Assembly (NCBI RefSeq): GCF_900100365.1
Contig: NZ_FNKU01000001.1
Coordinates: 5,576,501-5,640,500 of the forward strand
Length of the DNA stretch: 64,000 nt
Direction: 5' to 3'
DNA from: Pseudomonas cannabina
Lineage (GTDB): Bacteria; Pseudomonadota; Gammaproteobacteria; Pseudomonadales; Pseudomonadaceae
Below the pieces are notes generated by a model. The model searched no databases, had not been told where the DNA came from, and was given only the letters and a program-made list of their open reading frames with translations. This document shows positions 36,489-49,133 of this stretch, one piece after another (positions within the stretch are counted from its first letter, which is position 1; each line of letters begins with the position of its first letter). Made by a program: the position numbers and the translations under genes.

Positions 36489-36821
36489 TTAGGTCTGAGG
36501 GGGTTTGTCCAAAAGTGTCGGTGTGACAATGCTGCGTTTAAAGAAGAACAGGAACCCTGTACTGATTGCATACCCAACCGCCCAGGCCTGGGCGTTTTGA
36601 TTACCAAATCGCTCGTGGCCACGATTGATCGGCTGAACGCTGACCAGCTCCCATCCTTCTCTGCCGTGGCGATTCAATATGGCCAGCGTTTCAGGGTTGC
36701 TCAAATATCCGTGGATGTCCGGTTCGGTAGTGTCGTCCGTTGACTTGAACATCAGCACGCCGCTGGTCACGGTTTTATAGGGAAGGGGGACGAAGGTCTG
36801 GGTGTATTCAAATGTAGTCAT
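36489..36821 (-). CDS. DUF4177-like membrane protein of the ICE
   Basis: 110 residues from MTTFEYTQTF. The block LNRHGREGWELVSVQPINRG resembles DUF4177 proteins, and a C-terminal hydrophobic helix (AVGYAISTGFLFFFKRS) follows. The first 55 codons occur again, nearly identical, at 48969-49133, where the gene is cut off by an IS3 relic. So this backbone gene is duplicated across cargo block 2. Function unknown. Confidence 0.65.
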   Translation of the reverse strand: MTTFEYTQTFVPLPYKTVTSGVLMFKSTDDTTEPDIHGYLSNPETLAILNRHGREGWELVSVQPINRGHERFGNQNAQAWAVGYAISTGFLFFFKRSIVTPTLLDKPPQT

Positions 36822-36990
36822 AAGTACCAAATGCCAGGCAGGGAATGATGAATCAGGTGTGTCTTCAGGCTGCAACAGCCAGTTGCAACGATAAACCTCA
36901 AGGTTGGAAAATGTAACCTGCAGTAAGATGTTCGTTAGAAGATGGGGAAAAGCTGCGTTACGTAAATTTTGTTCTAGAAGGACAAGTGCA

Positions 36991-37422
36991 GTGCGGACGA
37001 TTGACTATCGAAGATTTGAATACAAGGGCGATTACGCGTCGGGGGCTTGCTTTGTACGTGTGGGTATCACCGATGGAGGAATGCTGTTCGGTTTGATCGC
37101 TCAGTTGCGAGACTATGACGGTACCTCTGTCACGAATGACATCGAAGAGATCATCAGCGGTGTGATTCATCGCCTTCATACCGAGCGGGCTTTACCCAAG
37201 GCGTTTTCTTCGATGTACGAAGTTCTTGAGCAATTTACTTGGGTCGAACACTACGCGCCTGGCATTGGAATCTCTTCTGAAGGGTCGTGGGCCATCGTCA
37301 CCCTCGATGCCAGCAATACACCTGATTGGGAATATATGACCCTCGATGATGTTGTAGCTCATACCGATGTAGACCCCGACTTCTTCACACTGGGCGAAGA
37401 CGACTCACGTCTCAAAAAGTAG
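36991..37422 (+). CDS. Unknown protein at the left border of cargo block 2
   Basis: 143 residues from a GTG at 36991 with an AGAAGGAC ribosome binding site; a longer start at 36904 seems less likely. The residues (VRTIDYRRFEYKGDYASGAC, HRLHTERALPKAFSSMYEVL, acidic tail DVDPDFFTLGEDDSRLKK) look like a real soluble acidic protein, but I do not recognise the family. It lies between the DUF4177-like gene and a helicase remnant and has no counterpart at the right border of the block. Confidence 0.55.
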   Translation: MRTIDYRRFEYKGDYASGACFVRVGITDGGMLFGLIAQLRDYDGTSVTNDIEEIISGVIHRLHTERALPKAFSSMYEVLEQFTWVEHYAPGIGISSEGSWAIVTLDASNTPDWEYMTLDDVVAHTDVDPDFFTLGEDDSRLKK

Positions 37423-37513
37423 ATGGCGGGGAAGGCACGGGGTATCGAGGCTTTGAGTGCTGCTTCATGTCCTTGAAGCGCTGCATGATGTCGATCGCCA
37501 GTGACACTAAAAT
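37412..37513 (-). pseudogene. C-terminal remnant of the ICE UvrD-like helicase gene
   Basis: The frame reads ILVSLAIDIMQRFKDMKQHS, matching the end of the helicase at 49143 (ILAVNSLVIDIMQRFKDNRS). Only about 20 related codons remain. With the duplicated DUF4177-like gene it shows that the border of cargo block 2 is made of duplicated ICE backbone. Confidence 0.65.
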
Positions 37514-37876
37514 CTGGCGCAGACCACAGGTTTCCAGCAAGCCTGCCCAGCAGCCGTTGGCCGTGGAGAGGTTTTTCAAAGGACGGGGTTTGAAACTGGT
37601 AGGCATGCATGATCACCGATTGCTTTGAAGGCAAAGACACTTTTTGCGTCTCAATAGGGAGGCTTTTAATTTTTGATACGGTACGTTCACAAATTCTAGA
37701 GTCTAAAGAGACAAACTTGACGATGGCCCCTTACGGAGGTAAGAGGATGGAGCTTCCAACAGCAGCGCTACCGGGCTATCGGACTGAATCGTGTGATCGC
37801 AGCCATGGTGCTGGGTAGTACAGGGGGCGGGGAGCAATGAAACAGAAAGTGCACTAAGCCGAGTGCATGCGCGTAA

Positions 37877-47763: not shown

Positions 47764-47818
47764 TAGATGGTCTAAAAGTGCAGGATCAAATCGACCTGTT
47801 TAACATAGGGTGTAGTGG

Positions 47819-48663
47819 TTAACTGATCCCGGACACGACGTTAAGTTTTTCCTCGGCCTGAGCCGGTGGCAGCCCACCATTAAATTGGTGTGGTCGAATC
47901 CAGTTGTACCGGTGCATCAAAAAATGGCTGATATCCCGCTGAGCTTGTTGGACCGTCGTGCAGCCTATGGTCGGTATCCACTCGGTTTTCAGACTCCTGA
48001 ACACCCGCTCCATCCGCGCATTATCCCAACAGTTCCCTCGCCTGCTCATGCTCTGACGCATGCGATATCGCCGAAGGCGCTGGCGAAAACTCCGGCTTCC
48101 ATATTGCGAGCCCTGTCGGAGTAGAACAGCAAACCCTGAGGCTTCCCTCGCTGCCCGTAAGCCATGTCCAAGGCCTTGATGACCAAGTCGGCATCCGGCT
48201 TTCCCGACAACGCCCAGCCCACAACACGGCGGGCAAAAAGATCTAGCACAACCGCCAGATACTGCCATTTCCCTTGAGCCCAGATGTAAGTGATATCGCC
48301 ACACCAGACGTGGTCAGGAGCGGGCACATCAAACTCCCGGTTCAAAATATTAGGGATGTCGGGCCGCTCGACCGTCGCCTTTTTGTAAGCATGCGATCCC
48401 GGTTGTTTGCTGACCAACTCCAGCTCGCGCATCAGGCTGCGTACCTTGAATCGCCCGATCTGCTCACCGTCGTCCTGCATCATGGCCATGATGCTACGGC
48501 TACCGGGAGCACTGCGGCCTTGGGTGAACAACTCGTTCAACCGACTGCGCAATCGAAGGCGTTCTACATCCGGTGTGCGGCGCCTGAGACGCCGAGCGTA
48601 GTGGCACGAGCGGGCCACTTCAAACACCTTGCACAGCCAATCAACCGGCTCGTGGATGCTCAA
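47819..48663 (-). pseudogene. IS3-family orfB (integrase core), frameshifted
   Basis: The first 200 codons (MSIHEPVDWLCKVFEVARSC...) give an rve integrase core (VWCGDITYIWAQGKWQYLAV, FARRVVGWALSG). After LLFYSD the frame is lost: one C is missing near 48121, and the expected continuation GSQYGSRSFRQRLRRYRMRQ, then SMSRRGNCWDNA.MERVFRS, is found in another frame to 47819. The catalytic second half is therefore out of frame and the element is inactive. Confidence 0.82.
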
Positions 48664-48968
48664 CTGGTCAATCAGCGCGAACGCTCGAGATCTTCCGACA
48701 TCAAGAGCGCGGTAGCCTTTTTTAAGATCGATTTTTCCCGCTCAAGGCGAGCAATTCGGGCTTCCAGCTCTTGGATTTTCTGCTGTTCCGGGGTCAGCGC
48801 TTTGCTCTGCGGGGTGACGCCCGTGCGTTCTTGCTGTACCTGGTCGACCCATCGGCACAAAGCCGACTCGCCGACACCAAGCGAGCGGCTGGCCTCAATG
48901 AAGCTGTAATCCTGCTTAAGAACGAGGTCGGCAGCCTCGCGTTTGAATTCAGGGGAAAAGGTACGGCG
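47820..48968 (-). mobile_element. IS3-family relic, orfA end truncated
   Basis: orfA and orfB of an IS3 element remain, but the orfA side has lost its inverted repeat, promoter and start codon. The junction at about 48968 fuses orfA in frame to the DUF4177-like gene. The outer limit near 47820 is approximate. The 55 bases between it and the IS630 end hold no gene. Confidence 0.65.
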
Positions 48969-49133
48969 TTCTCTGCCGTGGCGATTCAATACGGCCAGCG
49001 TTTCAGGGTTGTTCAAATATCCGTGCATGTCCGGTTCGGTAGTGTCGTCCGTCGACTTGAACATAAACACGCCACTGGTAACGGTTTTGTAGGGGAGTGG
49101 GACGAAGGTCTGGGTGTATTCAAAAGTAGTCAT
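48672..49133 (-). CDS. Chimeric frame: DUF4177-like start fused to IS3 orfA
   Basis: Residues 1-55 (MTTFEYTQTFVPLPYKTVTS... to LNRHGRE) repeat the start of the ICE gene at 36489-36821 with about three changes. From residue 56 on it is an IS3 orfA (RRTFSPEFKREAADLVLKQD, SLGVGESALCRWVDQVQQER, coiled coil ELEARIARLEREKSILKKAT). The fusion is in frame. It is a by-product of rearrangement rather than a functional gene, though the orfA helix-turn-helix is complete. Confidence 0.75.
   Translation of the reverse strand: MTTFEYTQTFVPLPYKTVTSGVFMFKSTDDTTEPDMHGYLNNPETLAVLNRHGRERRTFSPEFKREAADLVLKQDYSFIEASRSLGVGESALCRWVDQVQQERTGVTPQSKALTPEQQKIQELEARIARLEREKSILKKATALLMSEDLERSR

What the first reader, a model, noticed from the sequence alone, without database searches (positions are those of the whole stretch)
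36489..49133. Complete auxin gene set (iaaM, iaaH, iaaL, matE) as cargo of a conjugative element
The genes for making IAA from tryptophan, for conjugating it to lysine and for a coupled MATE exporter lie together inside the transfer region of a PFGI-1/PPHGI-1-type ICE, between the helicase/DUF4177-like genes and the RAQPRD gene. Knot-forming pseudomonads usually carry iaaMH on the chromosome or on plasmids (established knowledge); carriage on an ICE would let the whole trait move to new strains in one step. All four genes look intact. That they lie inside the ICE is seen directly from backbone genes on both sides.
Basis: partly seen in the sequence, partly recalled or inferred. Interest (0 to 1): 0.88.

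Follow-up and report, generated by a model that had tools for sequence, protein, structure and literature searches.

The report
Auxin genes in a truncated ICE
A plant-associated Pseudomonas carries its whole auxin-making gene set inside a known family of conjugative genomic islands, but this copy of the island has lost the end it needs to jump out, so the trait looks captured rather than freely mobile.

Summary
Four full-length genes (iaaL, matE, iaaM, iaaH) lie between DUF4177/RAQPRD and the helicase/TIGR03747/TraD genes of one P. syringae-type ICE at the clpB-side tRNA-Lys. Both flanks belong to one element: they are collinear with a second ICE ("B") in the same chromosome, which has other cargo at this spot, and with an ICE of another species ("G094"), where the spot is empty.

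The mobility inference needs correction. The window's ICE is truncated: parA and a 586-aa neighbour gene occur in this genome only in B, and no right-hand tRNA-Lys repeat was found. Its cargo is a mosaic of plasmid-like, IS and MITE pieces framed by a 165-bp duplication.

The wider idea gains support: G094 carries iaaMH between two 54-bp tRNA-Lys repeats, at a different (rulB-like) hotspot, which suggests two separate captures. The linked four-gene set is known from P. savastanoi pv. nerii and PsICEs are known (PMC10945833); my ten paper searches showed no auxin cargo on a PsICE. New member of a known kind.

The parts
9463..9538 (+). tRNA-Lys next to clpB (6416-8980): left att site (att-1 of the PsICE family)
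   Evidence: ARAGORN; repeat unit defined on B and G094; clpB/queC sites as in PMC10945833 section 5. The name clpB is recalled (854-aa ORF); no family search was run on it
10039..11478 (-). tyrosine recombinase (integrase), 479 aa
   Evidence: NCBIfam Xer-type matches; 484 aa in B (64%) and 467 aa in G094 (79%)
11475..13406 (-). MobH relaxase, PFGI-1 class (TIGR03760)
   Evidence: 97% to B
14484..19180 (-). mating-pair genes incl. TIGR03755, TIGR03756, TIGR03757 (the first ORF, 14484-16025, has no NCBIfam match)
25450..26997 (-). other cargo: XopAG/AvrGf1/HopG1-family type III effector gene, 515 aa
   Evidence: NCBIfam NF041402; hrp-box-like site 27047-27075 (1 mismatch)
28448..36409 (-). conjugation block: TraC TIGR03744, TIGR03751, 03752, 03749, 03746, 03750, 03745, RAQPRD
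   Evidence: 97% to ICE B over 27376-35699 and 92% over 35797-36838
36489..36821 (-). DUF4177 gene, left edge of the cargo hotspot
   Evidence: Pfam PF13783; homologues in B and G094
36657..36821 (+). left copy of 165-bp direct repeat (5' end of DUF4177 gene)
   Evidence: 153 of 165 identical
36904..37422 (+). 172-aa ORF, recurrent resident of this hotspot in related ICEs
   Evidence: found in 4 of 6 fetched stretches (65-99%; split in G056); no Pfam family
37468..37504 (+). remnant of the helicase 3' end; a short match to plasmid DNA starts at 37512
   Evidence: repeat D5; plasmid match 37512-37592 (84%, 81 bp)
38157..38262 (.). 106-bp MITE-like element with about 21-nt inverted ends
38685..39872 (-). 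iaaL, IAA-lysine synthetase, 395 aa
   Evidence: AMP-binding PF00501; plasmid homologue annotated iaaL; 38552-41517 is 96.0% identical to pv. avii plasmid PP5
39953..41329 (-). matE, MATE-family exporter, 458 aa
   Evidence: PF01554
39955..39984 (-). hrp-box motif GGAACC-N20-TCAT in the matE 3' end, upstream of iaaL
   Evidence: 2 matches in the window, 0.06 expected; the other, 51140-51169, lies in transfer genes; motif as given in PMC4544800
41506..43228 (+). IS4-like element with split transposase and imperfect 42-nt inverted ends, holding a MITE copy at 42003-42108
   Evidence: (Nterm_IS4 below its cut-off, DDE_Tnp_1 above)
43412..45085 (+). iaaM, tryptophan 2-monooxygenase, 557 aa
45123..46463 (+). 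iaaH, indoleacetamide hydrolase, 446 aa
   Evidence: PF01425
46591..47766 (-). IS630-type ISPsy32-like element
48969..49133 (+). right copy of the 165-bp direct repeat, fused to IS3-type orfA (ORF 48672-49133)
49143..53563 (-). UvrD-like helicase, TIGR03747, TraD TIGR03754: right edge of hotspot and transfer genes
   Evidence: TIGR03747 matches profile positions 34-233 of 233 only; 98% to B
53575..62243 (-). further backbone (TIGR03765, TIGR03759, SNF2/DEAD-type helicase, DUF6094)
   Evidence: Backbone runs on past the window; topB at L004:5930-8056; ICE homology ends at L004:8684 (window scale 72584)

Best explanation
A plasmid-type auxin module (matE-iaaL plus iaaMH, joined by an IS4-like element and MITEs) was taken up into the DUF4177-helicase cargo hotspot of a P. 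syringae-complex ICE at the clpB-side tRNA-Lys, by recombination that left pieces of two hotspot copies at its edges. Shown: gene content, single-element flanks, the duplicated edges, an empty and an otherwise filled homologous site. The ICE lost its right end (parA, its neighbours and attR), so it is now a resident island. Shown: the absence. Inferred: loss after capture, and immobility. Function, inferred from families: IaaM turns tryptophan to indoleacetamide, IaaH to IAA, IaaL locks IAA to lysine, MatE exports; iaaL keeps an hrp-box motif, so conjugation is likely tied to the type III regulon. The cargo could be passed by homologous recombination to sister ICE B, which keeps both ends and shares about 9 kb and 7 kb of 92-98% identical flank. 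Inferred; B has one backbone helicase gene split, so whether B itself transfers is open.
For: Genes and lengths. Backbone both sides. Collinearity with B and G094. 165-bp direct repeat, helicase remnant. Plasmid-like pieces: 38552-41517 96.0% to plasmid PP5 of pv. avii; iaaMH 90.8% to plasmid PP1 of pv. cerasicola. Truncation: the tRNA-Lys 3' end (21 bases, up to 2 mismatches) has three genomic copies, two of them the ends of B and one the left end here; ParA has its only close match in B, other matches being 26-51% and partial; the 586-aa gene has one copy, in B; no hit of 250 bp or more between B's last 19 kb and the window plus 80 kb to its right, IS-length hits left out. B ends in 52-bp and G094 in 54-bp repeats. 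hrp-box motif.
Against: No expression, metabolite or mobility data. The order of events (capture, then truncation) is not shown. Where the original right-hand chromosomal flank went is not settled: a 4.3-kb stretch starting 1.1 kb right of the G094 element proved to be accessory DNA with copies inside B and on contig C2 here, so it could not serve as a marker. B is not fully intact: its SNF2/DEAD-type helicase gene is in two ORFs (145 and 615 aa against 767 in the window and 752 in G094), at a MITE copy. No plasmid with both iaaL-matE and iaaMH was found at megablast sensitivity, so a one-piece plasmid donor is not shown. dnaB was not searched by itself in the whole genome.
Confidence: 0.8

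Rival explanations
1. The element is a complete, self-transmissible ICE that moves the auxin trait in one step.
For: Integrase, relaxase, TraC and TraD are about as long as in B and G094, and most TIGR037xx mating proteins cover nearly their whole profile.
Against: No right att repeat and no own parA or 586-aa gene; ICE homology stops at L004:8684 against both B and G094. TIGR03747 lacks the first 33 profile positions (as its equally long copy in B), and a MITE at 35696-35800 appears to cut the gene after RAQPRD (114 aa against 147 in B).
Confidence: 0.08
2. The right-hand loss or the cargo join is an assembly artefact around repeated IS and MITE copies.
For: Many near-identical IS and 106-bp MITE copies: 11 MITEs in A, 20 in B.
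Against: The contig is 5.82 Mb with no N in the region; I see no IS or MITE at the break at L004:8684 (sequence read); cargo edges carry diverged repeat copies (153 of 165 identical).
Confidence: 0.07
3. The cargo was built in place by separate IS-driven insertions into an ICE, not captured as one plasmid-type block.
For: iaaL-matE and iaaMH occur apart on different plasmids; IS4-like, IS630 and IS3 pieces separate or border them here.
Against: In Psn23 matE-iaaL already lies near iaaMH (PMC7074806 passage).
Confidence: 0.3

Closest known systems
PsICE family (ICEPsaNZ13, ICEPph1302A = PPHGI-1)
   Same: tRNA-Lys next to clpB or queC, syntenic int/tra/par backbone, cargo hotspots, inter-ICE mosaicism (PMC10945833, sections 5-7 read)
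   Different: Auxin cargo: 'auxin' and 'iaa' occur 0 times in that main text. The window element lacks attR and parA.
P. savastanoi pv. nerii Psn23 / plasmid pIAA1 auxin cluster
   Same: matE-iaaL near iaaMH (PMC7074806 passage); functional iaaL alleles beside matE and transposases, as on the plasmid of strain EW 2009 (PMC10280071 passages)
   Different: Here inside an ICE transfer region
Plasmids PP1 of pv. cerasicola CFBP6109 and PP5 of pv. avii CFBP3846
   Same: iaaMH (90.8%) and matE-iaaL (96.0%) respectively
   Different: Each matches one half only; PP1 has a carboxyltransferase gene after iaaH that is missing here
Locked-in ICE of DC3000 effector cluster IV and PmaES4326 ICEs
   [quoted passage not shown])
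   Different: Cargo there is effectors; here auxin genes plus a HopG1-family effector gene; integrase still full length but right end lost

Membership tests
PsICE (window element A) | Integrated in the 3' end of tRNA-Lys near clpB or queC | tested here: met
   (clpB named from recall)
PsICE (window element A) | Flanked by about 52-bp tRNA-Lys direct repeats | tested here: not met
   Right repeat not found. Present in B (52) and G094 (54)
PsICE (window element A) | Integrase, relaxase and transfer genes of the syntenic backbone | tested here: met
   I did not test all 62 backbone genes, and TIGR03747 is short at its N-terminus
PsICE (window element A) | Partition/maintenance end (parA and neighbours) | tested here: not met
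   therefore filed as PsICE-derived, truncated
PsICE (window element A) | Excises and conjugates | not testable with these tools
   needs wet work
IAM-pathway auxin set of P. savastanoi type | Full-length IaaM and IaaH of the right families | tested here: met
IAM-pathway auxin set of P. savastanoi type | Makes IAA and IAA-Lys | not testable with these tools
   needs LC-MS
HrpL regulon (iaaL) | hrp-box motif GGAACC-N20-TCAT upstream of iaaL | tested here: met
   HrpL dependence itself not tested
HrpL regulon (matE) | hrp-box motif upstream of matE | tested here: inconclusive
   canonical box not found there; the variant GGAACT-N19-TCAG of PMC4544800 was not searched with a tool

The most novel reading that the evidence does not exclude
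PsICEs are a recurrent vehicle for auxin biosynthesis: two separate captures, at two different hotspots (DUF4177-helicase here, rulB-like in G094), feed a hormone trait into an element family that recombines freely, so auxin genes can pass between sister ICEs within one chromosome even when one ICE is locked.
Probability: 0.5. Interest if true: 0.65.

Novelty: new member of a known kind. Interest (0 to 1): 0.45.

Why it matters
iaaMH of P. savastanoi has been described as chromosomal or plasmid-borne (PMC5478681 passage), and plasmids have been proposed as the movers of iaaL (PMC10280071 passage). Finding auxin genes in two ICEs of the known mobile island family of these bacteria adds a second route, here in the same element as a type III effector gene. 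It also gives a concrete case of a locked island lying beside a sister that keeps both ends, where cargo exchange can be looked for directly.

Tried and rejected
I took the 106-bp repeat for MITEPsy1 from memory; the terminal repeats printed in PMC3189936 (passages) differ, so I dropped the name. The tRNA-Pro beside the tRNA-Lys was considered as the att site (PMC8895235 speaks of tRNA-Pro); the repeats that bound B and G094 are tRNA-Lys. I tried to place the lost right flank with DNA starting 1.1 kb right of the G094 element; it is accessory DNA with several copies here, so it says nothing. The cytokinin gene family PF01745 was sought in the own genome: 0 matches (the 14-genome control rings in 9). 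Phage records: no match. Canonical hrp boxes with up to one mismatch lie at 21946, 27047 and 38582, the last one downstream of iaaL, none upstream of matE or iaaL; only the variant motif stands upstream of iaaL. The host strain was not identified (PMC6402114 strain table looked at without result). P. floridensis iaaM (76%, L009) was only checked for DNA shared with the window within its locus: iaaMH alone. KUIN-1 was no control for the hotspot: over 834-892 kb its clpB side shares with the window only the stretch from left of clpB through the integrase and relaxase (3355-13761) and a 512-bp piece.
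Full report
What was claimed. A complete auxin set as cargo of a PFGI-1/PPHGI-1-type conjugative element at 36489-49133.

The genes. Pfam gives AMP-binding (iaaL), MatE, amino oxidase (iaaM) and amidase (iaaH). All four are open from ATG to one stop: 395, 458, 557 and 446 aa (iaaH from ATG 45123). IaaM matches the solved tryptophan 2-monooxygenase 4IV9 over 557 of 557 residues with 10 differences, counted by me on the alignment. IaaH has no close solved relative; its best match (4wj3, E 1.3e-45) covers residues 3-226, the amidase core. 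The motif GGAACC-N20-TCAT that PMC4544800 reports upstream of iaaL (passages seen) is at 39955-39984. A second iaaL, 94% in protein, lies elsewhere in the genome, and so does a distant iaaM-like gene with one internal stop (36%).

The element. clpB (name recalled), tRNA-Lys 9463-9538, integrase, MobH/TIGR03760 relaxase, TIGR03755/56/57, a XopAG/HopG1-family effector gene, TraC TIGR03744, TIGR03751/52, TIGR03749/46/50/45, RAQPRD, DUF4177, cargo, helicase, TIGR03747, TraD, further backbone, then topB just beyond the window. This is the PsICE layout of PMC10945833 (sections 5-7 read).

One element, not two. The same chromosome holds a second ICE, B, at C1:621296-718061, ending in 52-bp tRNA-Lys repeats. 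A and B align at 88-90% over most of window 10503-19328, 97.1% over 27376-35699, 92.1% over 35797-36838, 97.7% over 49172-55381, and on in pieces of 91-99% to 72584. Between 36838 and 49172 B has 16 kb of other cargo (an MFS transporter, two ATP-grasp proteins, a 751-aa protein without Pfam family). In G094, another genome of the genus, the DUF4177 and helicase ORFs are 9 bp apart: the empty site. B is not fully intact: its SNF2/DEAD-type helicase gene is split into ORFs of 145 and 615 aa at a MITE copy, while the window's copy has 767 aa.

A real hotspot. Of 22 helicase copies in 20 of 398 genus genomes, by match ends, 7 have DUF4177 within about 120 bp, 4 within about 630-740 bp, 2 (the window's A and one of G380) keep only a DUF4177 5' fragment beside the helicase, and 9 have no DUF4177 match within the 1.5 kb of locus (four of these 9 are only 53-54% alike, so a diverged DUF4177 could be missed, and one is B). 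Of six stretches fetched, three place DUF4177 2.2 to 9.3 kb from the helicase (G056, G192, G326), one 0.6 kb (G380 C28), one has the fragment only (G380 C173) and one has no DUF4177 match (G008). The 172-aa ORF at 36904-37422 recurs in 4 of these 6, split by cargo in G056.

How the cargo got in. Its edges are two partial copies of the hotspot. On the left: DUF4177, the 172-aa ORF and a helicase remnant (37468-37504). On the right: the first 55 codons of DUF4177 next to the whole helicase gene. The shared 165 bp are 153 of 165 identical. A short plasmid match (84%, 81 bp) begins at 37512. This fits recombination between two ICE lineages or with a circular DNA; IS-driven build-up is the rival. 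The matE-iaaL part is 96.0% identical to plasmid PP5 of pv. avii CFBP3846, the iaaMH part 90.8% to plasmid PP1 of pv. cerasicola CFBP6109.

Mobility. The last 21 bases of tRNA-Lys occur three times in the genome at up to two mismatches: two are the ends of B and one is the left end of A. ParA has one full match (100%, in B) and otherwise only 26-51% partial relatives; the 586-aa gene near it has one copy, in B. Homology of A to both B and G094 stops at the same base, window-scale 72584. The element is therefore truncated and probably locked, as was argued for DC3000 (PMC8895235, passages and section 15). dnaB, which lies beside parA in B, was not searched by itself; it falls in the part of B without a match in A.

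Auxin genes in other ICEs. Of 398 genus genomes, 12 have an iaaM match at E 1e-100 or better: the own genome, G094 at 94%, and ten at 57-58%, whose surroundings I did not study. A second, overlapping draw of 293 relatives gave only the own genome and G094 at 1e-250. The genome-contig scan gave KUIN-1 (93%) and P. floridensis (76%). In G094 iaaMH lies inside an ICE with both 54-bp repeats (3253786 to 3390583), near a partial Y-family polymerase gene, two tyrosine recombinase genes and a Tn3 transposase gene, and is followed by a carboxyltransferase gene. That recalls the rulAB hotspot CR9 (PMC10945833). The pv. cerasicola plasmid has iaaM, iaaH and a carboxyltransferase gene with a Y-family polymerase gene one IS5 away. 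In KUIN-1 iaaMH sits about 1.6 kb from a tRNA-Lys (queC side, name recalled), and its 21.7-kb locus shares with the window only that tRNA and iaaMH. Identity of iaaMH: A-G094 91.9%, A-KUIN-1 92.6%, A-PP1 91.7%, G094-KUIN-1 94.4%, G094-PP1 94.3%, KUIN-1-PP1 93.0%. Different hotspot, partners and sequence make two separate captures the likelier reading.

Novelty. The linked set is known: PMC7074806 places matE-iaaL near iaaMH in Psn23 (passage). PsICEs are known. The PsICE survey does not contain the words auxin or iaa in its main text (supplements not seen). My ten paper searches listed no paper that I recognised as reporting auxin genes on an ICE of this family. I opened fourteen papers; of thirteen I saw passages or sections, and in PMC12388829 the auxin terms did not occur. 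Papers only listed were not read.

Noticed in passing
25450-26997: XopAG/HopG1-family effector gene inside the same ICE with an hrp-box-like site (1 mismatch); a 99% identical gene lies in the fetched ICE stretch of G192 (L091:7258-8802), none in B or in the G094 stretch searched.
   Followed up: partly
21034-21974: Lytic transglycosylase-like ORF (240 aa, MltB_2 positions 1-199 of 300) with a perfect canonical hrp box upstream at 21946-21974.
   Followed up: no
L004:15591-17320 and L005:17-6673: Right of the truncated end: YopJ-family acetyltransferase gene with CesT-type chaperone gene, and a 2218-aa RTX-repeat ORF.
   Followed up: no
L027 (C1:642568-658629): ICE B carries, at the same hotspot, a transporter, two ATP-grasp proteins and a 751-aa protein without Pfam family.
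   Followed up: partly
C1:683147-685553 (ICE B, L029): The SNF2/DEAD-type backbone helicase gene of ICE B is in two ORFs (145 and 615 aa) at a MITE copy.
   Followed up: partly
38157-38262 and 42003-42108: A 106-bp MITE-like element, 11 copies in A and 20 in B, none in the G094 stretch; its ends differ from MITEPsy1.
   Followed up: partly
36904-37422: 172-aa ORF without Pfam family that recurs at this hotspot; in G056 it is split by several kb of cargo.
   Followed up: partly
37877-37899: Run of 11 C followed by 12 A in the cargo's left part, just before the DNA that megablast matches to plasmids from about 37900.
   Followed up: no
L088 (G380:C173): A second ICE with only a DUF4177 5' fragment (30 codons) beside the helicase, the same kind of edge as in the window; none of the four auxin proteins matched in the stretch.
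   Followed up: partly
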